Source: Trypanosoma brucei gambiense DAL972 (taxonomy: Eukaryota; Euglenozoa; Kinetoplastea; Trypanosomatida; Trypanosomatidae). From it: a DNA stretch of 64,000 bases. The translations under genes were made by a program, and so were the position numbers. Below, one piece after another: positions 47,611 to 63,006 of the stretch. The notes beneath the pieces are model-generated. The model was not told where the DNA came from. It saw only the letters and a program-made list of their open reading frames with translations, and did not search any database. The stretch covers positions 1,488,001 to 1,552,000 of the forward strand of contig NC_026744.1 of the NCBI RefSeq assembly GCF_000210295.1, written 5' to 3'. The first letter of the stretch is position 1. The number at the start of each line of letters is the position of its first letter.

Positions 47611-49305
47611 ATGACGCATCAATCAACTGATGTGTCCGGGCCGTGTGGCTCTGCCGTTCTAACAAATCGTTATCTCAACAGAGGAACCGCCTTTACCATT
47701 GAAGAACGCAAACAGTTGCATATTCTCGGGCAGCTTCCTACAGTTGTTGAAACCCTGGAGCAGCAGGTGAAGCGTGCGTACAATCAGATGAAGAGCTGTG
47801 GCAAGCCCATCGATCAGTACCAACAGCTTGCTGCACTTCACGCTACAAATACAACCCTTTATTACGCGACCATCTTTGCGCACCTTGAGGAAACACTTCC
47901 CATTATTTACACACCTACAGTGGGAGAGGCTTGCCAACGGTACAGCAGCCTTTTGTTTCGTGAGCGCGGGCTGTACTTATGCCGCACGTACAAGGGTATG
48001 TTCCGTACCATCATGCGCGATTCAGGGTACGAGAATCCGAAAGTTGTTGTAATAACTGATGGTTCTCGCATCTTGGGTCTTGGTGACCTCGGAGCAAACG
48101 GTGTGGGCATCAGCATTGGCAAATGTTCACTATATGTTGCCGGCGCCGGAATCAATCCAAAGAATGTTGTCCCCGTTGTACTTGACGCAGGGACAGATAA
48201 TGCGGCTATGTTGAGTGACGATAATTATATCGGTGTGCGTGAAAAACGCCCCTCTGATGAGGATTTCTACGCTTTGTTGGATGAGTTCATGGAGGCTGCG
48301 AGTGAAGCATGGCCGGAAGCCGTTATACAATTTGAGGACTTCAGCAACAACCATTGTTTTGACATGCTTGAGCGGTACCAAAACAAGTATCGATGCTTCA
48401 ATGATGATATTCAGGGAACTGGTGCTGTAATTGCTGCAGGCTTCCTAAATGCTGTGAAGCTTTCAAAGGTGGATCCCCTTGACCATCGTATTGTTGTGTT
48501 TGGCGCTGGTTCCGCTGCTATTGGTGTGGTGGACAATATTGCGGAGCTCACTGCACAACTGTACAACCTCAAGTCCGATGATGTGAAGAAGACATTTTAT
48601 CTCGTTGACACAAAGGGTCTCGTTACCACTACGCGTGGCGACAAGTTGGCCTCCCATAAAGTGTCACTGGCTCGTACCGATGTCTCTGCAGAAGATTCAG
48701 CGAAATTGAAGACGTTGGAAGACGTTGTAAATTTTGTGAAACCGACAACGCTCCTCGGACTTGGCGGCGTGGGCCCGGTATTCACGGAGAGCATGGTGAA
48801 GGGTATTCTAAACAACACGAAACGGCCAATTATATTTCCACTTTCCAACCCCACCAGCAAATCTGAGATCACCGCAGACAACGCCTTCAAGTGGACCGAT
48901 GGTAAGGCAATTGTCGCAACTGGCAGTCCCTTCCCGCCCACAACTCTGAACGGCAAGACATACAAAGCATCCCAAGGTAACAATTTGTATGTTTTCCCCG
49001 GTATTGGACTTGGTTGTGCCATCGCGAAACCGGCGTATATTCCCAATGATTTACTTATTGCCGCTTCTCGCTGCCTTAACGGCCTTGTTTCAAAGGTGGG
49101 GCTTGAAGATGGATCTCTGTACCCTCCTCTGAGTGATATCCACAACATTTCTGCCAATATTGCTACCGATGTCATTATGGAAGCACAGCGCTTGAAGATT
49201 GACAACAACTCTTCGTTGCCCCGCACACGAGCGGAGTTGATGGATTATGTGAAGCATGCCATGTGGAAGCCGGAGTATCCAACAGGCATTCTCCCTGACG
49301 AGTAA
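47611..49305 (+). CDS. MEc: Malic enzyme, cytosolic type (NADP-dependent, decarboxylating)
   Basis: 564 residues. It converts malate to pyruvate and CO2, giving NADPH. Catalytic residues are present: Y100 in PIIYTPTVGEACQ, K171 in GISIGKCSLY, metal ligands E242, D243 (FEDFSNNHCF) and D266 (CFNDDIQGT). Nucleotide-binding motif VVFGAGSAAIG. The segment LVDTKGLV keeps the Lys that binds the NADP 2'-phosphate in animal enzymes. There is no presequence, so cytosolic location is likely. Tandem with the mitochondrial form downstream (1.8 kb spacer); several blocks are identical at DNA level, which indicates gene conversion. No glycosomal C-terminal signal. Confidence 0.93.
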   Translation: MTHQSTDVSGPCGSAVLTNRYLNRGTAFTIEERKQLHILGQLPTVVETLEQQVKRAYNQMKSCGKPIDQYQQLAALHATNTTLYYATIFAHLEETLPIIYTPTVGEACQRYSSLLFRERGLYLCRTYKGMFRTIMRDSGYENPKVVVITDGSRILGLGDLGANGVGISIGKCSLYVAGAGINPKNVVPVVLDAGTDNAAMLSDDNYIGVREKRPSDEDFYALLDEFMEAASEAWPEAVIQFEDFSNNHCFDMLERYQNKYRCFNDDIQGTGAVIAAGFLNAVKLSKVDPLDHRIVVFGAGSAAIGVVDNIAELTAQLYNLKSDDVKKTFYLVDTKGLVTTTRGDKLASHKVSLARTDVSAEDSAKLKTLEDVVNFVKPTTLLGLGGVGPVFTESMVKGILNNTKRPIIFPLSNPTSKSEITADNAFKWTDGKAIVATGSPFPPTTLNGKTYKASQGNNLYVFPGIGLGCAIAKPAYIPNDLLIAASRCLNGLVSKVGLEDGSLYPPLSDIHNISANIATDVIMEAQRLKIDNNSSLPRTRAELMDYVKHAMWKPEYPTGILPDE

Positions 49306-51069
49306 TGTAAGGGACGTGAAGGGAGCGATTGACACTCCGTGCTTACACCAATATCGGTGAGCGGAGCATCCCTTTTACGAAGAAATTTCAGGTGAACACC
49401 CTTTTATATACTAAAAACGTGTGTCTTGTATATCTTCTACAGACAAAGCATATATATATATATATTGTCGTTTCATGTTTTATTTATTAATTTCGTCTTC
49501 ATTTTACGTTCGCAGCAGCACTTTTTTTTGTTTATTTTCTCTATTTTTCTTTTACATTTTATTCGTCGCCTCGTTTCTGAGGTCTTTCGCCACTTTTACC
49601 CTTTGTTGGGGGCTGTTTGCAGTATGGTGAAAGTCTTTTACTGCTGGGATAATGAAATTGTGTGTCGCATAACTGCGTGTAGAAAACGAACGGAATAAAT
49701 TGGACATGAGCCAGTTACCGAGGTTTATGAAAGGATTAACCACAGTTGTGGAGTGCCGTATACAAATGATGAAACGTATCGAAACGTGGTGAAGAGAGAA
49801 AAGAAGTAGGCACGAGAGGGGATAAATTTTTTTTTTTGTGATATGAAGGAGACGTTCGTAAGTTTTTCTCTTTTTTAGCCTATGAGCGTGTGTGCCGCAG
49901 CACAGGCTCTAGAGTTTCGTGAAGTATGAGGGTTCGAATGGGTTCCCGTACTTTTTCATATTTGAAAAACATTTTTTTTTTTCATATGTGTCTGGTGGTT
50001 CATATTTGTTAGCCACTTTTTCCCCCTTCCTCTGTTTATGGTGAACGCGTAAATAACAATTACTGTTGTAATCGCTCATCACACCGTGGCGGATTGCGGT
50101 AGCCAAACTTCTCACGAAGAGGATGGAGCTGCGGGGAGCGGAGGATTAATTGATAACGTCATGATAGTAAACAGGAGACACTTTTTTCATCAGTGTAAAA
50201 CTCACGGTTCCGCAACAATACACGCCGAAGAGCCTCTACTTTTTTTACTGCAGTAATTAATTGCTGAGGAAAAGCAAATGCTTTTATATTGCAGGGAAAG
50301 GGGGGGGGATGCAAGGGGGGAAAATATTGATATTGCAATCTTTTTCTTTTTAGGGGGGGGGGAGATGCGGTGTAAGAGCGTAGAGGGACAGAGGTACATC
50401 AATGAAACACCAACTTTCAATGCGCTGTGGTTGCTTCTGTTGTGTCGGATTATGTTCGTCTGTTAATTGAGTTGGATGTGGTGCCTGTATGTGTCGGGTT
50501 TTGAATTACAACTTCCAGATGCTCCTGTGCTTCATTGTCGATATATGTTTTCATTTATTTCTATCTTTATTTTTGTTTTGTATGTTTTGCCGTGTGTGCG
50601 TTGTGATTCTGTGATGAACTCATAGTTTTTGAAGAGATAGGGTGGGCTCAGTGGGAAAATATTATATTTAAAATAAACTAGGAGGAAGAAATAACTTAAA
50701 GAGAAAGCACAATCAACGAGGAGGAAGACGTTCAGAAACGCAAAAGACACACGAGCAGATCCAATATCATCATATCGCTTCTCACTACGAGAATAAACTG
50801 TCACTTTTATTTGTTTCCTCCTATTAACGTTGAGCGAAAGGAGGAAGGTAAACAAATTGAAAGGGAGTAAGTTGTCATTTGGATGACGAAACTACACTTG
50901 TTTTTGGCATCCCTCTTCAAAAAAATTTCCACTTTCGTTTTATGATTTAAAGAATTGTTATAAAAAACAAGATAAGGACGTGTTGACGAGTACAAACAAA
51001 AAAGGAGGAAACTAAGGTTACTTAAGCAAGTCATACTCTGCTTTGAAGAAAAATCAGGTAACAGGTGCG
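49306..51069. other. Spacer between the malic enzyme genes, 1.76 kb
   Basis: TA run at about 49448-49465, T-rich 49480-49570, T-runs at 49828-49838 and 49971-49982, three G-runs at 50294-50362, and an A/G-rich leader to the second gene. Unlike the coding regions, I see no blocks duplicated from the other malic enzyme flank. Confidence 0.5.
50294..50362 (+). other. Cluster of G-runs, possible G-quadruplex
   Basis: GGG at 50294-50296, G9 at 50300-50308, G6 at 50315-50320, G10 at 50353-50362 on the transcribed-sense strand. The first three runs alone satisfy a four-tract G-quadruplex pattern. Confidence 0.45.
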
Positions 51070-52785
51070 ATGTTGGGCCGTTCGTTTAAACTTTGTGTTT
51101 CCACAAACGCCCGTGGGATCGATTTTCTCCGCAACCGTTTCACCAATAAGTCAACCGCGTTCACACGGAAGGAACGAGAACACCTCGGTGTTGTTGGGCT
51201 ACTTCCACCCGCGGAGGAGACACTTGACGACCATGTCAAGCGCTGCTGGACACAATTGACCCATTTGGAGTACCCAATCAACAAATACCAACTCTTACAG
51301 GGAATTCTCAGCACTAATACTGTTCTTTATTACAAGATTGTGGAAACCTACATGAAGGAAACACTTCCCATTATTTACACACCTACAGTGGGAGAGGCTT
51401 GTCAAAAGTACGGAAACATCTTTCAAAGAGACCATGGACTCTACATAAGCATGAAGGAACGTGGGGTGATCCGGCAGACCCTTGAAAACCTTCGGAAACC
51501 TGAGGTTGAAGTTATTGTAATAACTGATGGTTCTCGCATCTTGGGTCTTGGTGACCTCGGAGCAAACGGTATGGGCATCAGCATTGGCAAATGTTCACTA
51601 TATGTTGCCGCCGGTGGAATTAACCCGAGCCGCATCCTACCAGTTATGATGGACGTGGGGACAGATAATGAAGGACTTCGTGCGGATCCTCAATATCTTG
51701 GTTTGCGCCAAAAACGCCCCTCTGATGAGGATTTCTACGCTTTGTTGGATGAGTTCATGGAGGCTGCGAGTGAAGCATGGCCGGAAGCCGTTATACAATT
51801 TGAGGACTTCAGCAACAACCATTGTTTTGACATGCTTGAGCGGTACCAAAACAAGTATCGATGCTTCAATGATGATATTCAGGGAACTGGTGCTGTAATT
51901 GCTGCAGGCTTCCTAAATGCCATCGAGGCAAGCGGCATTCCTGCAGAGGATCATCGAATAGTGTTTTTTGGCGCTGGTTCCGCTGCGACAGGTGTGGCCA
52001 CCTGCATTGTTGACTTGGTTGCCGCAAAGTACAAAAAGACGTTCGCAGAAGTGCAGAATAACGTATATCTTCTTGATACCAAGGGTGTCATAACAACCAC
52101 GCGTGGCGACAAGTTGGCACCACACAAGGTCCCGTGGGCCCGCACTGATATTTCAGCCGAGCAGAGCAAATCGCTTTCCACATTGGTGGATGCTGTGAAG
52201 TTTGTCAAACCAACAGCGCTGATCGGCCTTGGAGCCCAAGGTGGTGTTTTCACTGAGGATATTCTAAAGTTTATGCGATCATACTGCGAGAAGCCCGTGA
52301 TTTTTGCACTTTCCAACCCCTCAAGCAAAGTGGAGGTTACTCCAGACAACGCCTTCAAGTGGACCGATGGTAAGGCAATTGTCGCAACTGGCAGTCCCTT
52401 CCCGCCCACAACTCTGAACGGCAAGAAATATGAGGCATCCCAAGGTAACAATTTGTATGTTTTCCCCGGTATTGGACTTGGTTGTGCCATCGCGCAGCCG
52501 AAAAATATCCCACAGGAGGTACTCCAAACAGCGGCCGTCACCCTCAGTAAGTTAGTGGATCGTAATGTCATGGCTTCTGAGGGAGCACTGTATCCATGTA
52601 TTGATGAAGTGCGTGAAGTGTCGAAACAGGTGGCAGCTGCTGTGATTGAAAAGTTGCAAGAGATGGGTTTGGCAAAGGAGGGGTTGCCCACAAGCAAAGA
52701 GGAACGATTGAAATTGGTGGAGGAACGGATGTGGACACCCAAGTATCTTGAACCGGAATATTACCTGTCGAAGAAGCTGGAGTAA
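51070..52785 (+). CDS. MEm: Malic enzyme, mitochondrial type (NADP-dependent, decarboxylating)
   Basis: 571 residues from ATG 51070; nine upstream codons of open frame lack an ATG. The N-terminus MLGRSFKLCVSTNARG is basic, without acidic residues, and fits a short mitochondrial presequence absent from the upstream paralogue. Catalytic residues are conserved: Y103 in PIIYTPTVGEACQ, K174 in GISIGKCSLY, FEDFSNN and CFNDDIQGT for metal, VFFGAGSAATG for the nucleotide, LLDTKGV with the NADP-type Lys. It would supply NADPH and pyruvate in the mitochondrion. Five DNA blocks of 46-211 bp are identical or have one mismatch to the first gene, while intervening segments are strongly diverged. Confidence 0.93.
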   Translation: MLGRSFKLCVSTNARGIDFLRNRFTNKSTAFTRKEREHLGVVGLLPPAEETLDDHVKRCWTQLTHLEYPINKYQLLQGILSTNTVLYYKIVETYMKETLPIIYTPTVGEACQKYGNIFQRDHGLYISMKERGVIRQTLENLRKPEVEVIVITDGSRILGLGDLGANGMGISIGKCSLYVAAGGINPSRILPVMMDVGTDNEGLRADPQYLGLRQKRPSDEDFYALLDEFMEAASEAWPEAVIQFEDFSNNHCFDMLERYQNKYRCFNDDIQGTGAVIAAGFLNAIEASGIPAEDHRIVFFGAGSAATGVATCIVDLVAAKYKKTFAEVQNNVYLLDTKGVITTTRGDKLAPHKVPWARTDISAEQSKSLSTLVDAVKFVKPTALIGLGAQGGVFTEDILKFMRSYCEKPVIFALSNPSSKVEVTPDNAFKWTDGKAIVATGSPFPPTTLNGKKYEASQGNNLYVFPGIGLGCAIAQPKNIPQEVLQTAAVTLSKLVDRNVMASEGALYPCIDEVREVSKQVAAAVIEKLQEMGLAKEGLPTSKEERLKLVEERMWTPKYLEPEYYLSKKLE

Positions 52786-55001: not shown

Positions 55002-56255
55002 ATGTCTTTTTTTGAAGATAGCGCAGACGAACCCCCAAGAAAAAGAAGCCATGCTGAGCGGCAGTCATCTGGGCAAGGGCAAAGTAGCGGTCGAAGCTCT
55101 CAGAACCGGGTTCGGGGTTGTGAGACGGAGAGCGATGATGAGGATGCGGCACCAGTGTTTTCTCGCGATGCAAGCGGACGTGTTGGTTTGCGATTACTGC
55201 AGCAAATGCAAAAGTCTACTCCACAGGTGGGGAGTTCTTCTTCAGTCTCAACTGGTGTATCAAATACTGGAAAATTACTTGTGGTAGAGGATTACGTACC
55301 GCTATCCGTTGGTGGTTTCATGGAAACCTCGACCGAGTCTGCAGCGAACAGCCTTGACAACATTAAACCAGGCGATATTATGTGTCTGCGGTGCCCTTCT
55401 GATTTTCGGGCTGAACCAAATGGTAATGTGAAATGTTCTAAAGTCTCGAGTAGCACATCGTGTGGCACAACGGCGGGTATTAACTTTGTCAAGGAAACAG
55501 AACTAACAGCGGAGGAAAGGCAGTATGGGCGCCGCTTGACATGTGAAATGATGAATGAAATGTTTGAAGTAAGCCGCCTTGATCGTGCCACAAACTCTCT
55601 GGAAGCCGTTTTCCTTGACGGGACACGAAAGAAACTTAAAACTTATGCAGTTCGTCCTGCGGGTTTTGTTGAATCTGAGCTATACAAACGATGGAAGGCT
55701 GATGAAAGTTCGCGGCCCGTTCGGGCCGTATACGCGGCGCAGAAGCTTCAGGTTACCGAGTCCTCTGGAGCCAATTCTGGAAGCAGCAGGGATGTTGATG
55801 GCAAAACCGCCGCAAGTGCGGTGCAATCCGCCGTGTGGTGGGTTGTGCCCCAACTTATCGTGCGTCTTGTGGAAGAGAGTGCCGGAGACCTTTTTGGAAA
55901 GAAGTTTGTTGTGAAGTCTATAGCGCGGAAGGATGGAAAGATACGTCTTGAACCGCTCCGTGTTCCGGATGTTACCGTTTACAAAGATACCAGAGACCAT
56001 GCTTTGCCCAACAGAGGGACGGAACACTCGGCTGTGGATGTCTTCGGTTGTGCAGCACTCGAAACTGTGATACCTCGTTTAGGAGAACAGGGGCTTATTG
56101 TTCAGGGCCCTATGCGTGGCGAACTCGTGGTCGTTACATCACGTGTGCGGAGTCCAAATGGGGGTCTTGAGAAAGTTAAGGTGCGCTCAACATTGACGGA
56201 GGAGGAATTCTCTGTTGAACCGCATATGTTGTGCATGATGGTTACTCAGCGGTAG
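55002..56255 (+). CDS. KOW-type protein resembling the C-terminus of KIN17/GPKOW
   Basis: 417 residues. The N-terminal 75 residues are basic and disordered. The C-terminal domain (about 279-417) begins WWVVPQLIVRLVEES and contains ALETVIPRLGEQGLIVQGP followed by MRG. This matches the tandem SH3/KOW region of KIN17 and GPKOW, where WxxPxIxVRxV and LETVIP lie in the same order. Those proteins bind RNA and associate with the spliceosome or DNA replication. The middle (105-230) includes LVVEDYVPLSVGGF, reminiscent of but not clearly a G-patch. A role in trans-splicing is possible but only inferred. ATG 55002 is the first sensible start. Confidence 0.75.
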   Translation: MSFFEDSADEPPRKRSHAERQSSGQGQSSGRSSQNRVRGCETESDDEDAAPVFSRDASGRVGLRLLQQMQKSTPQVGSSSSVSTGVSNTGKLLVVEDYVPLSVGGFMETSTESAANSLDNIKPGDIMCLRCPSDFRAEPNGNVKCSKVSSSTSCGTTAGINFVKETELTAEERQYGRRLTCEMMNEMFEVSRLDRATNSLEAVFLDGTRKKLKTYAVRPAGFVESELYKRWKADESSRPVRAVYAAQKLQVTESSGANSGSSRDVDGKTAASAVQSAVWWVVPQLIVRLVEESAGDLFGKKFVVKSIARKDGKIRLEPLRVPDVTVYKDTRDHALPNRGTEHSAVDVFGCAALETVIPRLGEQGLIVQGPMRGELVVVTSRVRSPNGGLEKVKVRSTLTEEEFSVEPHMLCMMVTQR

Positions 56256-56500: not shown

Positions 56501-58123
56501 ATGATGAACATATCACCTCAATTTAAACGGTGGGGACAAAACACCCGGAATTTGCAACAGCAGGAAGCATATCCCTTGCGGGAACCTCCCTTCGATACAT
56601 ACATGGTGTTAGATTTTGAAGCTACATGCGAGCGCCACCAACGTCTTGAAGTGCCGGAAGTTATTGAATTTCCTATAGTCCTCGTAGATGCGCGGAATGG
56701 TAATACCATTAGTGAATTCCAGCAGTACGTGCGACCGGTAGTTAACCCTCAGCTCTCTGAGTTTTGCACTGAGCTTACGGGTATAACGCAATCAGTGGTA
56801 GATAGAGCAAGCACATTTCCCGACGTATTTACCGCTGCGATGAACTACCTTCACCAAAATAATTGTGGTGAGACAGAAATAAACAAAAGATATCTCCCCG
56901 TGACATGTGGTGACTGGGACCTCAAGACAATGCTTCCTATTCAGGTGAAAGCGTGTATCCAACAGGGGTTTACGGTCAACGTGCCTCCATCCCTTCGCCG
57001 GTGGTTCAATATCAAACAGTACATGCAAAGAGTTTTATCTCCGGGTTTGGGACAAACGGTGTCACAACCTATACACGATCTTCCAGATATGATGTCTGTA
57101 CTCGGTCTGGAGATGAAGGGCAGGCACCACAGCGGGATAGATGACTGCAGAAATATAGCCGCTGTGCTATGTGAACTTATCAAACTTGGCCATGTTATTA
57201 CCCCAACAACAGACTACAATAGTGAGCTCACACGGGGTACCTCGTGGGTTAATGTCGGTGCAACTACGTCCTTGAAGCCCAGTGCAGGTTTAGGGAAGTG
57301 TCAGCAAATGCCTCACTGCCGAGAGGAGGGTTCGAACAACTCTGCCATGGGACGGAAGAGGGCTGCTAGTGACACAGTGAACAATCAACAGAGCATGATC
57401 AAGAGGATTCATATTAACGTGCTTGAAAATGAAGATCCGCTACAAGACTTGCTAAACTTGAAGACTGATGACAGAAACAGGATGGGTAGTGAAGACATGA
57501 CAAAGGAAAAGGTGGTTATATATTCTAAGGCCCTCTCCCGCATTCTCCGACATGGAGCAGACAAAATGAAAATTACAATCTCGGATGCCGGGTATGTGCT
57601 AGCCGACGATTTAGTACGCTGTGCGCCCTTCTCTAACGATAAGGCAGCGCTGACCCATCTCGCCTGGGTGGTTTATTCCAACGACAAGAAACGATTTAAA
57701 ATGGCTTACGATGAAAACAGGCGTGTATACATACGCGCTAACCAGGGGCACAGTTTGTCTGGGATTAATCCCGAACTGGTTCCAATCACTAGCGAGACTC
57801 AAGTCCCTTTTGCTGTGCATGGCACGTATTATTCTGCGTGGGAACGAATACGTGGCTGTGGTTATCTTTCAACAATGGGACGACAACACATTCACTTTGC
57901 CAAGGGGATGCCAGGGTCCGACGGCGTTATAAGTGGAATGAGAAATACCTCAGAGGTGCTTTTAGTTCTTGACGTGCCGTTGCTTTTGAAGGAATCTGTG
58001 GAGTTGTGGGAAAGTGCCAACGGCGTGCTACTTACCCGTGGTGTAAGTGGCACGGGTCGACTGCCTTTGAAGTATATCAGTTCTGTGGTCGATCGCCGGA
58101 CAAATGATCTACTACCACGGTGA
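56501..58123 (+). CDS. Fusion of an ERI1-type DEDDh 3'-5' exonuclease and a Tpt1/KptA RNA 2'-phosphotransferase
   Basis: 540 residues in two modules. Residues 33-235: ERI1/3'hExo-like exonuclease with Exo I LDFEATCE (D38, E40), FQQYVRPVVNPQLSEFCTEL, Exo II GDWDLK (D140) and Exo III HHSGIDDCRN (H210, D214/D215), the complete DEDDh set. A linker (about 240-335) is Ser/Asn-rich. Residues 340-540: Tpt1 with SRILRHGADK (R350, H351), IRANQGHS (R412) and RQHIHFA (R461), the four catalytic residues of yeast Tpt1, plus GVLLTRGVSGTGRLPLKY. Tpt1 uses NAD+ to remove the 2'-phosphate left by tRNA ligation. ERI1 proteins trim 3' ends of rRNA, histone mRNA or small RNAs. Both active sites look intact. The frame is continuous, so the fusion is not a prediction artefact within this sequence. 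Confidence 0.92.
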   Translation: MMNISPQFKRWGQNTRNLQQQEAYPLREPPFDTYMVLDFEATCERHQRLEVPEVIEFPIVLVDARNGNTISEFQQYVRPVVNPQLSEFCTELTGITQSVVDRASTFPDVFTAAMNYLHQNNCGETEINKRYLPVTCGDWDLKTMLPIQVKACIQQGFTVNVPPSLRRWFNIKQYMQRVLSPGLGQTVSQPIHDLPDMMSVLGLEMKGRHHSGIDDCRNIAAVLCELIKLGHVITPTTDYNSELTRGTSWVNVGATTSLKPSAGLGKCQQMPHCREEGSNNSAMGRKRAASDTVNNQQSMIKRIHINVLENEDPLQDLLNLKTDDRNRMGSEDMTKEKVVIYSKALSRILRHGADKMKITISDAGYVLADDLVRCAPFSNDKAALTHLAWVVYSNDKKRFKMAYDENRRVYIRANQGHSLSGINPELVPITSETQVPFAVHGTYYSAWERIRGCGYLSTMGRQHIHFAKGMPGSDGVISGMRNTSEVLLVLDVPLLLKESVELWESANGVLLTRGVSGTGRLPLKYISSVVDRRTNDLLPR

Positions 58124-58260: not shown

Positions 58261-58317
58261 TTGTTTTTTTTTTTAAAAACGGTGATTAGTACTTCCCCTG
58301 TCTTCCCCGGGTGCCAG
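58261..58317 (+). promoter_or_regulatory. T-run and candidate SL acceptors deciding the SAC start
   Basis: T-run 58264-58274, AG at 58288-58289, then a second C/T tract and AG at 58316-58317. These lie inside an ATG-less upstream extension of the frame, so the ATG at 58324 is the start. Confidence 0.5.
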
Positions 58318-58323
58318 TGGGGA

Positions 58324-61300
58324 ATGATGGACAGTGATTTGCAGGGTCACCGTAACAGTGGACAACGATGCTCACCGTGGGTAAATTGTGATGCATTCCT
58401 GCAACCGGAGATCACTAAACCACTTAGGAACATTGTTGTCTGTGACCTCCCAGCACAATGTTACATTATTGGCACGAGTTCCAAAAAAAACATCGAGCAG
58501 AAAGAAGTGTTGTTGTTTAATAAAAGTGATGGTGGACCTCTTGTCTATAGCTATAGCAGATCATACACGGCGGACGAAGTGGACTCGCTTACCGCTTGTG
58601 CATCGAAAGAGGGGCGGCTGCTACATGTCAAAGCACTACTGGGATGCGTTCGCTTTACTAGTGGTTATTACCTACTTTTGGCAACTAGGCGGCAAACGGT
58701 AGCGCGTATAGGCTTTAATCGCATTTTCGAAGCTCTCGATATTGAACTTGTTTCATTGTGTCTTCCAAAAATGATAGCTTTAACGACCGTAGTGGCCACA
58801 AAGGCGGCGACGGTGTTGGGAGTAAAGGGGCCGGCGAGCTCGTCAATACAAAAAGCTCGTCTTCAAGAGGAGGAGTATTGTCGACAGTTTCTTTCATCAG
58901 CACATAAGCAAAACCTGTTTTACTCGCGCACATATGATTTGACAAACACGCTGCAGTCCAACATGACCATCCCCAGCCAGAGACGGCTTGTGCGGACAAA
59001 GTTTGTGTGGAATGAATTTCTTTTGGAACCGTTATTCACTCTACAGGAGACGGAATCTGTTCGGTGCGAGAGAGAATCTGCTCAAAATGGTGGCCAATCA
59101 TATGAGGCAGCACCGCTGTGCCCTAAGGATTTGCGGCGGTGGTTTGTCTACGTTGCACAAGGGTCTATTGTCCAGCGTGCCGTGTGGTGTGGGTCCCGAC
59201 CACTGCTCTTTACACTGATAGCTCGCACAAGTAAAAACTACGCTGGTGCCCGTTACTTTCGTCGCGGTGTGAATGGGAACGGCCACGTTGCAAACCATGT
59301 TGAGATCGAGCAAATTATCTCCGACGAATCAACGTTGCACGACTATGGGCGAAGAGGCAGTTTTACATCTTACGTCCAGGTACGTGGTTCGGTACCCCTT
59401 CACTGGTTTCAGCCACCTACACAACTCCCTAAACCACCTATTAAATTGGGCATGAGTAATTTTTATTGCGTCGACACCTGCAGACACTTCCAGGAACTTC
59501 TAGGGGACTATGGTGCACCAGTTATTGTTGTGAACTTGCTACGAAAGCGGGAGAAACACCTCCGTGAAGGTGCTCTTGGCAGTGAGTTTAAGAAAGCTGT
59601 GGAAACTTTAATTGGATACACGAAAAAGGATTTTTTAGGTGGGTGCGAAAGCTCATCAAACGTGTTGATCTACAGGGAATATGACATACGGGCCAGTGCA
59701 CAAGACGCCTGGAACAAGACAACATCGCTGGCGGAAGAGGTGTTCGCCAAGAACGGGTTTTTTGTATGTGGTACTGACGCGAGCACTGGTGTCGACACTG
59801 GTTGTTATGGTCGGTGTTGCATTCATAGTAATGGTTATGATGCAGAACGGAGTGTAAGACTACAACAGGGTGTAACTCGCAGCAACTGTCTTGACTGCGT
59901 TGATCGAACTAATTTAGCCCAGTATTTCTTTGGTTTGCATGCACTCGGGTATCAACTGCATGCTCTTGGTCTTCTCCATTCACCAATAGATCTCTCTCTT
60001 TCGCCCCAGGTACGCGAGCAGTTCCTGCACATGTACCTATTGATGGGAGATATTATTGCCTTGCATTATGGCGGGTCGGCACAGGTGGGGGCTGGTGTGC
60101 TAAACCGAGGAACGGGGTGGGACAAAATGATGGGTATCAAGCGGTTGTACAACAATATCCTCGGTGATCGCGAGAAACAGTTGTTCATGAACCTCTTTCT
60201 CGGTCGGTTTCAGCCATGTCCAAATCGGTGCTCCCCTTCCCAAAACCCAGTGATGCGCATCCCTGATGGTGAACAGCAGGGCACTGGGAGCGATGGAAAA
60301 GGCAATGAGTCCAACGAATCAACTAATTCCAGTAAACAGGTTGCTTGTTTAGCAGACCTGTCTGAGGGAGCATCTGACTACTACTTAGTGGTCAATGGTG
60401 GCCCATCGCTCCCCGATCCCACTGAACTAGTCGGATGGTGGAAGAAGCCATTACAATTCTTTAGTAGCTTCTTCCAGCCTCGCCAACGGTCCTTGCTGGA
60501 CGAGAACGCACCTTCCTCTCCTGTGTCCTTCGGTTTCGTACCGCACGAGGGCGGGAATGGTAAAGGATCTGCAGATGATGAGGAAGAGTACATTGTTCGA
60601 GAAATATGCATTGATGAACGTGCGGCAGCCATTGATCCATATACTAATAGGGGGTTGGTCGGCGCAGGTGCAGGTGAGTTGAAAGAGGAAGGTTCAGCTG
60701 TATTGTTGCAACGAACAACAGCGGCCACGACATCACTTAACCGGAAAACACGGACCCTTCTAACCGCTGCGCACACCGAACCGTCACCACAGATTTTATG
60801 GTTCGTGCAGGATTCCTTGTGCAATGAGCAGCACCAGGAAGCTGAATTTCCACAGAGCGACGTTGCGTCCAACAAACGTGACATCCCGACTGAAAAGATA
60901 CCTGATGATTTACTCTACTATGATCATCTCACATATCCTGATTACGTGTTAGGGAGTGAATTTAACAAGAACATTGAAACAGCAAGATGTATGTGCGATA
61001 ATTGCGTCCCCGAGGATGACCTCCAACGCATGCAGTTGGAGGTAATGCACAAATATGGTGATCCATGTGACTGGGGTGTGGAAACAGTTATAGACGCTCT
61101 GCTAGATGTGGAACCGGGTGTGAAGCGCGAAACCATAGATGCATTGCGACAGATGAATGTTCATGGACGTACGCTACTCAATATGAACACAAAATCTCTG
61201 GAAGAGAAGGTTTTGCTTCAACGCTTCATCAGGTTGGTGGACAAACTGTTTCGTTCAGCATCCAGCTCCCCTCCCCAGCATGTTAGGGACGACGAGATGA

Positions 61301-63006
61301 GTGAATTATGGTTGCTCCACCAACACAGTGATGCTTTAGAAAAGTCAAATATATTCGCTTCTTGCAAAATTGTATCTTGTCCGGACGCTACGCAACGGGT
61401 GCTGCAACCCTTCTTTCGTGATTTGTTGGCACCGGATATTATTGCGGCGACACTGAGAACATTAATATCGAAGATGGCCGATCCTGACTCCGGCGTCCCG
61501 CGCAGTGATCGAATTCGCTACCGTGAGGGAAGTGGCTGCCAATACGTTCCTCCTGTTGTAGTAGCACAGCAATGCTTTAGTTCTAATGAACTGCATGAAT
61601 GGTTGCTCACCGAATCACCGCGCTTGGGCCTCACATTACATGAGCATGTCGAGTCGCACGAAAGGGCACAAGCGTGTTGGCAATTTGTTCTCTGGTTAGT
61701 GCATGCAAAAATTGTCGTTCCAATATCTATTGAACTAGTCTCCGGTGTTTTAGTGCCCCCTGTTGTTACAAGGGCTGATGTGACATCATCTACAAGGCTG
61801 TTTACATTGAGTACAATACAGGAACTCCACGTGCTCAACGAAAGTGAGCGTCACCCGTGTGGTGACGTGGATGTGCTGAGGGTTAAAATAAACCCAATCA
61901 AATCAACCCCTTTGCTTCTCACCGGAGCTTCTGCTCTCGCATGTGCCGAAACTCTGGTTGCTGTGGCGTTGGATACATTGCTTTACATGCAGGATATGTC
62001 CTCACCTACTGTACCCCCAGATGTGTCCCACAACCCCACTGCTTGGAAGTTGTTGGAGACGGTATCCACTTCCAGTGCTCACCTTGCAGCGGTTAACATC
62101 AGAGGGCTTGAGCGCCGGGAGCTGTTCTGCTTCTGGGCGAACGTTTTCAACGCCTTGTACATTCATGCATGGATGTCAACACTAGGCAAACGGGCACAGG
62201 ATTTTACATGCTTCTACAATACAAATGGTTATAACGTTGGCGGTTGCTTCTTTTCGTTGAGTGACATCAAAGATGGCATATTAAGGGGAAACAAACCCGC
62301 CTACTACGCTGTTCTACCTCCGTTCAGCAAGTCTGACCCGCGATTGTTTATGGTTATCCCCCCAGATCCGAGTGACATTGAAGTGGAACTGCAAATGAAA
62401 TCCAGAAATTGTTTTGATGATAAGCATATCACCACCTCAAGTCGCCGTGATCTTCATACACGTATTTTGCTTGCTTTAATTGACGCCTACCTGGTGCCGG
62501 AGAATTTTGAAGACATGCCGTCGTACAACCCGCGAACGCTCCTCTTTGCAAGTTCCCCCACTGTTGCGTCACGCAGTGCAGAGGGAAGTAACAGCAGTTT
62601 CCTGGAGGATGACTTGGAAATTGACGAATCTTATCGATCGCGTACTACTGTGGGGTTGTGGCACGCGAATAGTATTCCTGTCGTTGCTGCGACCTGGCTA
62701 TCGTCATGGTTCAACCAGCGCCACACGAATAAAAGCTCCACTCTTGCCAATCCATGTGTTCCACTTACTTCAGAACACCTATTGCAGCAAATACATGCCG
62801 CGGAGAGTTTTGTGTTGCGCTCACTCAGTCGCGCTCCACAGCCCACTGTTCCACTTCATGGCGTGCATGTCCCTCGAGCTTTGCTGCCGCTGTTTGTCAA
62901 TATGGACAACGCTAGTATTGATGAGTTCATGCAATTACTGTCCGTTTCGCCACGGTCAGAAACATCACTTCGATGTGATATGTGGATTTCTAACCCACCT
63001 GCGTAA
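58324..63006 (+). CDS. SAC-domain phosphoinositide phosphatase fused to SAM-like, DEP and DUF547 domains
   Basis: 1560 residues from ATG 58324. Residues about 100-650 form a SAC phosphatase: LLGCVRFTSGYYLLLATRR, WNEFLLEPL, RYFRRGVNGNGHVANHVEIE, and the catalytic loop RSNCLDCVDRTNLAQ with CX5R (C522, R528). This family removes phosphates from phosphoinositides. An acidic and Ser-rich linker follows. Residues 916-976 (WGVETVIDALLDVEP to VDKLF) look SAM-like. About 1075-1140 (FSSNELHEWLLTES, ERAQACWQFVLWLV) is DEP-like, a module that binds membranes. About 1265-1390 (FWANVFNALYIHAWM, YNVGGCFFSLSDIKDGILRG, DPRLFMVIPP) is DUF547. DEP-DUF547 pairs are known from other proteins; the fusion to SAC is unusual. 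Likely acts on membranes. The DUF547 function is unknown. Confidence 0.88.
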   Translation: MMDSDLQGHRNSGQRCSPWVNCDAFLQPEITKPLRNIVVCDLPAQCYIIGTSSKKNIEQKEVLLFNKSDGGPLVYSYSRSYTADEVDSLTACASKEGRLLHVKALLGCVRFTSGYYLLLATRRQTVARIGFNRIFEALDIELVSLCLPKMIALTTVVATKAATVLGVKGPASSSIQKARLQEEEYCRQFLSSAHKQNLFYSRTYDLTNTLQSNMTIPSQRRLVRTKFVWNEFLLEPLFTLQETESVRCERESAQNGGQSYEAAPLCPKDLRRWFVYVAQGSIVQRAVWCGSRPLLFTLIARTSKNYAGARYFRRGVNGNGHVANHVEIEQIISDESTLHDYGRRGSFTSYVQVRGSVPLHWFQPPTQLPKPPIKLGMSNFYCVDTCRHFQELLGDYGAPVIVVNLLRKREKHLREGALGSEFKKAVETLIGYTKKDFLGGCESSSNVLIYREYDIRASAQDAWNKTTSLAEEVFAKNGFFVCGTDASTGVDTGCYGRCCIHSNGYDAERSVRLQQGVTRSNCLDCVDRTNLAQYFFGLHALGYQLHALGLLHSPIDLSLSPQVREQFLHMYLLMGDIIALHYGGSAQVGAGVLNRGTGWDKMMGIKRLYNNILGDREKQLFMNLFLGRFQPCPNRCSPSQNPVMRIPDGEQQGTGSDGKGNESNESTNSSKQVACLADLSEGASDYYLVVNGGPSLPDPTELVGWWKKPLQFFSSFFQPRQRSLLDENAPSSPVSFGFVPHEGGNGKGSADDEEEYIVREICIDERAAAIDPYTNRGLVGAGAGELKEEGSAVLLQRTTAATTSLNRKTRTLLTAAHTEPSPQILWFVQDSLCNEQHQEAEFPQSDVASNKRDIPTEKIPDDLLYYDHLTYPDYVLGSEFNKNIETARCMCDNCVPEDDLQRMQLEVMHKYGDPCDWGVETVIDALLDVEPGVKRETIDALRQMNVHGRTLLNMNTKSLEEKVLLQRFIRLVDKLFRSASSSPPQHVRDDEMSELWLLHQHSDALEKSNIFASCKIVSCPDATQRVLQPFFRDLLAPDIIAATLRTLISKMADPDSGVPRSDRIRYREGSGCQYVPPVVVAQQCFSSNELHEWLLTESPRLGLTLHEHVESHERAQACWQFVLWLVHAKIVVPISIELVSGVLVPPVVTRADVTSSTRLFTLSTIQELHVLNESERHPCGDVDVLRVKINPIKSTPLLLTGASALACAETLVAVALDTLLYMQDMSSPTVPPDVSHNPTAWKLLETVSTSSAHLAAVNIRGLERRELFCFWANVFNALYIHAWMSTLGKRAQDFTCFYNTNGYNVGGCFFSLSDIKDGILRGNKPAYYAVLPPFSKSDPRLFMVIPPDPSDIEVELQMKSRNCFDDKHITTSSRRDLHTRILLALIDAYLVPENFEDMPSYNPRTLLFASSPTVASRSAEGSNSSFLEDDLEIDESYRSRTTVGLWHANSIPVVAATWLSSWFNQRHTNKSSTLANPCVPLTSEHLLQQIHAAESFVLRSLSRAPQPTVPLHGVHVPRALLPLFVNMDNASIDEFMQLLSVSPRSETSLRCDMWISNPPA

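What the first reader, a model, noticed from the sequence alone, without database searches (positions are those of the whole stretch)
56501..58123. ERI1-type exonuclease fused to Tpt1 RNA 2'-phosphotransferase in one continuous frame
Seen: a complete DEDDh exonuclease (D38, E40, D140, H210, D214/215) and a complete Tpt1 catalytic set (R350, H351, R412, R461) in a single 540-residue frame. Known: Tpt1 removes the splice-junction 2'-phosphate made by plant/fungal-type tRNA ligation, with NAD+; ERI1 trims structured RNA 3' ends. Inference: one polypeptide could repair or mature RNA by trimming a 3' end and clearing a 2'-phosphate. Trypanosomes have very few intron-containing tRNAs, so a dedicated fused enzyme suggests further substrates, such as broken or ligated RNAs. 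I know of no described enzyme with this pairing.
Basis: partly seen in the sequence, partly recalled or inferred. Interest (0 to 1): 0.82.

Follow-up and report, generated by a model that had tools for sequence, protein, structure and literature searches.

The report
ERI3-like exonuclease fused to Tpt1
Trypanosomes make a single protein that joins an RNA-end-trimming enzyme to the enzyme that erases the 2'-phosphate scar left by RNA ligation, and unrelated algae and protists have joined the same two enzymes in the opposite order, which suggests that erasing the scar and trimming RNA ends belong to one job.

Summary
Confirmed: one 540-codon frame (56501-58123, +) holds an ERI-family DEDDh exonuclease domain and a full Tpt1/KptA 2'-phosphotransferase domain. 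Corrections: the nuclease matches ERI3 slightly better than ERI1, and the third Tpt1 tetrad arginine is R398, not R412. It is the only Tpt1 match in this Trypanosoma brucei-group assembly. The fusion is not a trypanosome oddity. All 21 named ERI-Tpt1 records are kinetoplastids, including Bodo; named Tpt1-ERI records are chlorarachniophytes, brown and raphidophyte algae, Chromera and a green alga. Both catalytic sets are intact in 50 of 50 ERI-Tpt1 proteins; in 68 Tpt1-ERI proteins they are intact in 66 (nuclease) and 59 (Tpt1), exceptions being gapped but for one. On chosen rows, trees reject one common fusion clade (AU p 0.001 ERI, 0.04 Tpt1), so the pairing probably arose at least twice. No paper listing or passage I saw describes it, though database records already name both domains. 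Best mechanism (inferred): Tpt1 erases ligase-made 2'-phosphates, which block exonucleases, and the tethered nuclease trims or degrades the cleared 3' end. Activities and shared substrate are untested.

The parts
56501..58123 (+). single-frame gene, 540 codons, ERI3-like exonuclease + Tpt1 RNA 2'-phosphotransferase
   Evidence: only Tpt1 match in the 22.1 Mb assembly; probably Tb927.11.5480, inferred because the next gene downstream carries the SAC1 domain expected of Tb927.11.5490 = SYJ3
56582..57217 (+). ERI-family DEDDh 3'-5' exonuclease domain (residues 28-239); D38 56612-56614, E40 56618-56620, D140 56918-56920, H210 57128-57130, D215 57143-57145
57218..57514 (+). linker (residues 240-338), mostly disordered in the model
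   Evidence: pLDDT under 50 at 240-296; no pyrimidine run of 8+ in 57215-57520
57404..57457 (+). conserved motif in the linker (residues 302-319), confidently modelled although it follows a disordered stretch; found mainly in ERI-Tpt1 order
   Evidence: pLDDT block means 94 and 90 for 301-310 and 311-320; hydrophobic in 95-100% of the ungapped rows among 39 at 305, 307, 314, 317, 318
57515..58042 (+). Tpt1/KptA RNA 2'-phosphotransferase domain (Pfam residues 339-514); R350 57548-57550, H351 57551-57553, R398 57692-57694, R461 57881-57883

Best explanation
The gene encodes a bifunctional RNA-end enzyme. Its Tpt1 domain is the only recognisable NAD+-dependent RNA 2'-phosphotransferase in this assembly, so it most likely finishes tRNA-Tyr after Trl1 ligation and clears any other 2'-phosphate that Trl1-type healing leaves (internal 2'-PO4 at junctions, or 2'-PO4/3'-OH ends made by the ligase's phosphodiesterase). 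Its ERI3-like domain is a 3'-5' exoribonuclease. I propose that the two act in sequence on the same RNAs: Tpt1 removes the 2'-phosphate that would stall 3'-5' digestion, and the tethered nuclease then trims or destroys the cleared end ('unblock and trim'). Shown here: the fusion, its conservation, intact active sites, fold matches, a single Tpt1 match, a Trl1-type ligase in the genome, and recurrence of the pairing in the opposite order. Inferred: both enzyme activities, a shared substrate, and the order of the steps.
For: Both domains and both catalytic sets intact. Two opposite orders: 50 ERI-Tpt1 and 66 Tpt1-ERI among the 121 proteins, query included. One clade of all fusions is rejected on the chosen rows: AU p 0.001 (ERI), 0.04 (Tpt1). 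Recurrent fusion of the same pair argues for linked function. 2'-PO4 blocks exonucleases: PMC6456296 reports that a 2'-phosphate stopped Xrn1 and, citing Munir 2018, that an internal 2'-phosphate protected RNA from 3'-5' decay by PNPase (passages); removing Up47 made archaeal tRNA more sensitive to RNase I (PMC9095486 passages). Only Tpt1 match; Trl1-type ligase with ligase and P-loop domains; PMC10598085 gives T. brucei Trl1 a cyclic phosphodiesterase domain (passage). Rare extra domains in Tpt1-ERI proteins fit RNA-end chemistry: MJ1316 'RNA cyclic group end recognition' in Chromera, above cut-off, and a NADAR match in P0082, 35.0 bits against a cut-off of 35.1.
Against: No activity, localisation or substrate datum was found here for any member. 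AF2 gives no sign of a fixed arrangement of the two domains: pTM 0.53 and 0.64. The genome has three further ERI-type nucleases, so the fused nuclease is not the only one available. Diplonema, Naegleria and others have a Tpt1 of separate length, so fusion is not universal. No Tpt1 frame lies in 46 of 46 bacterial loci with ERI3-like genes (my own profile, no positive control). The published blocks concern Xrn1, PNPase and RNase I, not an ERI nuclease. Most extra-domain scans showed only the two domains.
Confidence: 0.45

Rival explanations
1. Tether only: the fusion brings two independent enzymes to the same place or RNP (for example cytoplasmic tRNA maturation), Tpt1 finishing the splice junction and the ERI domain trimming tRNA or rRNA 3' trailers, with no chemical coupling between the steps.
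For: Long, mostly disordered linker and no sign of a fixed domain orientation; linker length varies from 65 to 233 residues in 50 ERI-Tpt1 and from 7 to 420 in 68 Tpt1-ERI proteins. tRNA splicing is cytoplasmic in T. brucei (PMC9067531 passages).
Against: Would not by itself explain why this pair was fused in both orders; a 2'-phosphate is reported to stop exonucleases.
Confidence: 0.3
2. Quality control of splicing: the ERI domain degrades unligated or mis-ligated tRNA halves and excised introns, while Tpt1 acts on correctly ligated tRNA; the fusion is a sorting device, not an unblock-then-trim enzyme.
For: Only Tpt1 match in the assembly; one intron-containing tRNA with cytoplasmic splicing by Trl1 (passages).
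Against: Pfam shows no further RNA-binding domain in the protein; no other search for tRNA recognition was made.
Confidence: 0.15
3. Neutral fusion: the pair became joined by chance once in kinetoplastids and persists without functional meaning.
For: Diplonema, Naegleria, Percolomonas and others have Tpt1 records of separate length (whether they also hold a fusion was not tested).
Against: Opposite-order fusions in unrelated lineages, one-clade origin rejected, and both active sites kept in 50 of 50 ERI-Tpt1 proteins. The background rate of Tpt1 fusions with other domains was not measured.
Confidence: 0.08
4. Gene-model or assembly artefact: two separate genes read as one.
For: Only one named Trypanosoma record, T. 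conorhini P0052, lacks a Tpt1 match; it breaks off after the start of that domain.
Against: Same fusion in 21 named kinetoplastid records; no long pyrimidine run in the linker DNA; transcriptome-derived records of the reverse order, e.g. P0062 and P0065.
Confidence: 0.02

Closest known systems
ERI3 / ERI1 (3'hExo) DEDDh exoribonucleases
   Same: fold and DEDDh residues; among the best PDB matches are 2xri and 7k05 (ERI3) and 1w0h (3'hExo)
   Different: those solved chains matched only the nuclease part; here the nuclease is followed by a linker and Tpt1
Tpt1/KptA/TRPT1 tRNA 2'-phosphotransferase
   Same: fold and full Arg-His-Arg-Arg tetrad (tetrad's role from PMC6333775 passages)
   Different: solved human (253 residues), mouse (249) and 7yw4 (230, which I take to be the yeast enzyme) chains matched only the Tpt1 part
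Tpt1-ERI reverse-order fusions (Amorphochlora, Partenskyella, Ectocarpus, Heterosigma, Chromera, Cymbomonas)
   Same: same two domains in one chain, with the catalytic residues in most
   Different: opposite domain order; mostly lack the kinetoplastid linker motif by a loose pattern (2 of 68 against 32 of 50, pattern drawn from the latter)
KptA-Nudix protein of Bodo saltans mimivirus (PMC9503650 passage)
   Same: a KptA domain fused to another RNA/nucleotide-processing enzyme
   Different: partner is Nudix, proposed to process the ADP-ribose product, not a nuclease

Membership tests
Tpt1/KptA RNA 2'-phosphotransferase | PTS_2-RNA domain above Pfam cut-off | tested here: met
   179.8 bits against a cut-off of 26
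Tpt1/KptA RNA 2'-phosphotransferase | Arg-His-Arg-Arg tetrad | tested here: met
   R350, H351, R398, R461, by alignment to 7yw4 and in 50 of 50 ERI-Tpt1 proteins; the tetrad's role is from PMC6333775 passages
Tpt1/KptA RNA 2'-phosphotransferase | NAD+-dependent removal of an RNA 2'-phosphate | not testable with these tools
   needs purified protein
ERI-family DEDDh exonuclease | RNase_T domain with D, E, D, H, D set | tested here: met
   77.7 bits against 24; invariant in 39 of 39
ERI-family DEDDh exonuclease | ERI3 rather than ERI1 subfamily | tested here: inconclusive
   ERI3 slightly better by E-value but tied by Z; human ERI1 was a long branch in the tree
ERI-family DEDDh exonuclease | 3'-5' exoribonuclease activity | not testable with these tools
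   needs purified protein
one single fusion family covering both orders | all fused proteins form one clade in each domain tree | tested here: not met
   AU p 0.001 for ERI, 0.04 for Tpt1 (would not survive correction for the five tests run)
kinetoplastid ERI-Tpt1 family | ERI-Tpt1 proteins form one clade | tested here: inconclusive
   one side of a branch in the careful ERI tree, support 61/74; not rejected in the Tpt1 tree, p 0.534; quick trees needed 4 and 2 changes

The most novel reading that the evidence does not exclude
Eukaryotes have an undescribed RNA-clearance pathway in which 2'-phosphates left by healing and ligation act as nuclease-resistance marks, and a dedicated enzyme, built independently at least twice by joining Tpt1 and an ERI nuclease in opposite orders, erases the mark and then digests the RNA from its 3' end.
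Probability: 0.3. Interest if true: 0.82.

Novelty: new variant of a known kind. Interest (0 to 1): 0.6.

Why it matters
What Tpt1 does beyond tRNA splicing is an open question: PMC6333775 (passages) says that its reactions are not obvious in taxa without a fungal-type ligase, and that loss of mouse or E. coli Tpt1 has no phenotype. A nuclease fused to Tpt1 in two opposite orders names a candidate partner activity and makes the question testable with one purified protein and one defined RNA. In the T. brucei-group assembly searched it is also the only Tpt1 match, beside a Trl1-type ligase.

Tried and rejected
Bacterial gene neighbourhood: 46 loci encoding ERI3-like nucleases, flanks up to 6 kb, held no Tpt1 frame by the profile built (0 of 46; no positive control was run), so no support from operons. 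Viral origin of the short-linker Tpt1-ERI group (P0096, P0105, P0107, P0109, P0111, P0112): one scan of viral contigs found no relative. Domain interface: neither AF2 model has a pTM that would fix the arrangement; I had no coordinates, so I do not say what the linker motif contacts. Quick trees of 102 rows gave 4 and 2 changes for the ERI-Tpt1 group; the Tpt1 domain of P0047 lay outside the group and inside it. The short record P0122 nests beside Leptomonas and may be a fragment of a fused protein; it was left out. The careful trees used chosen rows only: 60 of the 238 Tpt1-bearing proteins and, for ERI, 60 of the 241 ERI-bearing proteins plus human ERI3. P0092 was dropped from the latter after it came out as a long branch, and human ERI1 too. 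Truncated Tpt1-ERI rows, double-ERI proteins and many full-length rows were left out of the trees. The Tpt1-ERI group alone was rejected as one clade for ERI (p 0.035) but not for Tpt1 (p 0.276), so its number of origins is open. PF08302 in the own genome: no match, but the control rang nowhere, so uninformative. The homologue counts are biased: one search used a two-domain query and lists the best 120 of 728; searches list 120 of 344 and 120 of 1453 and by design exclude long proteins. on ERI1 chemistry gave nothing I used.

Full report
What is there. The frame 56501-58123 (+) encodes 540 residues without interruption. Pfam finds two domains above cut-off: RNase_T at 36-223 (77.7 bits) and PTS_2-RNA (Tpt1/KptA) at 339-514 (179.8 bits). 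The window lies in a 22.1 Mb assembly of 11 contigs and the protein is 99% identical to a cluster that includes Trypanosoma equiperdum (P0002), so this is the T. brucei group. The next gene downstream carries a SAC1 domain; a T. brucei table lists Tb927.11.5490 as synaptojanin 3 (PMC7595295 passage), so the gene is probably Tb927.11.5480. That is inference; no paper in the library holds this identifier.

Is it real and conserved? Among the 121 proteins (query plus the best 120 of 728), 50 have ERI-Tpt1 order, 66 have Tpt1-ERI order, 4 have two ERI copies and 1 has ERI alone. All 21 named ERI-Tpt1 records are kinetoplastids: Trypanosoma, Leishmania, Leptomonas, Phytomonas, Novymonas, Porcisia and the free-living Bodo saltans; the other 29 are the query and 28 records without an organism name. 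The one named kinetoplastid without a Tpt1 match, T. conorhini P0052, contains the linker motif and the first residues of Tpt1 and then departs from the family, which looks like a damaged gene model. Named Tpt1-ERI records are Amorphochlora, Partenskyella, Ectocarpus, Heterosigma, Chromera and Cymbomonas (Partenskyella by its taxid); they fall in Rhizaria, Stramenopiles, Alveolata and Chlorophyta. Of 49 Tpt1-ERI and 39 ERI-Tpt1 members chosen for alignment, all 88 match both Pfam families. The DEDDh set is intact in 50 of 50 ERI-Tpt1 and 66 of 68 Tpt1-ERI proteins, and the tetrad in 50 of 50 and 59 of 68; the rest are gapped at the site except one with a serine (the 68 include two fragments).

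One fusion or several? Tpt1 records of separate length exist for Diplonema papillatum, Naegleria and Percolomonas, and in a record labelled PhF_6 that I recall as a prokinetoplastid. That last one (P0127) and an unnamed separate protein (P0124) join the ERI-Tpt1 group in the Tpt1 trees, at unresolved positions near its base, as expected if a separate Tpt1 gained the nuclease in the kinetoplastid line. Holding all fused proteins together in one clade is rejected for the ERI domain (p 0.001) and marginally for Tpt1 (p 0.04). Five such tests were run and a sixth was not needed, so only the first would survive correction. The ERI-Tpt1 group alone is compatible with one origin in both careful trees. 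The Tpt1-ERI group alone is rejected for ERI (p 0.035) but not for Tpt1 (p 0.276), so more than one origin, or losses, are open. Many inner branches are weakly supported, and the trees hold chosen rows (see Tried and rejected). The opposite order itself requires either two fusions or a rearrangement.

Pathway setting. The gene is the only Tpt1 match in the assembly. A Trl1-type protein has an RNA ligase domain and a P-loop (AAA-type) domain where a kinase would lie (weak matches to solved tRNA ligases; its C-terminal end is cut off in the locus), and an RtcB is also present. PMC10598085 (passages) says that T. brucei Trl1 has ligase, kinase and cyclic phosphodiesterase domains and joins tRNA exons. 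PMC13247085 (passage) and PMC12699882 (passages) place trypanosome RtcB in mitochondria, the latter noting a further report to compare. PMC9067531 (passages) says that tRNA-Tyr is the only intron-containing tRNA and is spliced in the cytoplasm. So a 2'-phosphotransferase is expected and this is the one candidate found. Three other ERI-type nucleases occur in the genome (L002, L003, L004), so the fused nuclease is probably specialised.

How it most likely works. Trl1-type healing leaves 2'-phosphates. PMC6456296 (passages, abstract included) reports that a HAC1 fragment with a 2'-phosphate resists Xrn1 and cites protection from PNPase, a 3'-5' enzyme. PMC9095486 (passages) shows that removal of an internal 2'-phosphate raises sensitivity to RNase I. 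A nuclease fused to the eraser could therefore remove the block and continue. Rare extra domains in the reverse-order proteins point to the same chemistry: MJ1316 'RNA cyclic group end recognition' in Chromera (35.0 bits, cut-off 26.3), an FHA domain in P0084, and a NADAR match in P0082 just under cut-off; one of 49 aligned Tpt1-ERI proteins has a Tudor domain and most have nothing extra. I give this model 0.45; the tether-only rival 0.3.

Novelty. Six paper searches showed no description of the pairing. I saw listings and starts of abstracts, with passages of some papers; some searches listed 15 of 32, 25 of 160 and 15 of 299 papers. The library is open-licence and lacks most subscription journals. 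Database record names already give both domains. I rate it a new variant of a known kind, with interest raised by the two opposite orders.

Noticed in passing
window 58261-63006 (+): Next gene joins a SAC1 phosphoinositide phosphatase domain (Syja_N) to a DUF547 domain in one 1560-residue chain when read from 58324; probably SYJ3.
   Followed up: partly
window 47611-49305 and 51043-52785 (+): Two malic enzyme genes on the same strand, about 1.7 kb apart.
   Followed up: no
window 55002-56255 (+): Upstream gene has only a weak match to the GPKOW C-terminal domain (17.6 bits, cut-off 65).
   Followed up: no
own genome C3:1312956-1321098 (L002, L003, L004): Three further ERI-type nuclease genes lie within about 8 kb of each other.
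   Followed up: partly
window 57404-57457: Linker motif, confidently modelled and conserved in ERI-Tpt1 proteins; its contact partner is unknown.
   Followed up: partly
P0001 residue 412 and equivalents: An arginine nearly fixed in other Tpt1 proteins is replaced in 35 of 50 ERI-Tpt1 proteins, though not in this one.
   Followed up: no
P0115 (Chromera), P0082, P0084: Tpt1-ERI proteins with an extra MJ1316, NADAR (just under cut-off) or FHA domain.
   Followed up: partly
L012-L057: ERI3-like nucleases in Nannocystis, Sandaracinus, planctomycetes and other bacteria, 46 loci, none with a Tpt1 frame in the fetched flanks.
   Followed up: partly
P0050, P0057: Two unnamed Tpt1-ERI proteins grouped with Diplonema's separate Tpt1 in the quick tree but not clearly in the careful one; if diplonemid, both orders would occur within Euglenozoa.
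   Followed up: partly
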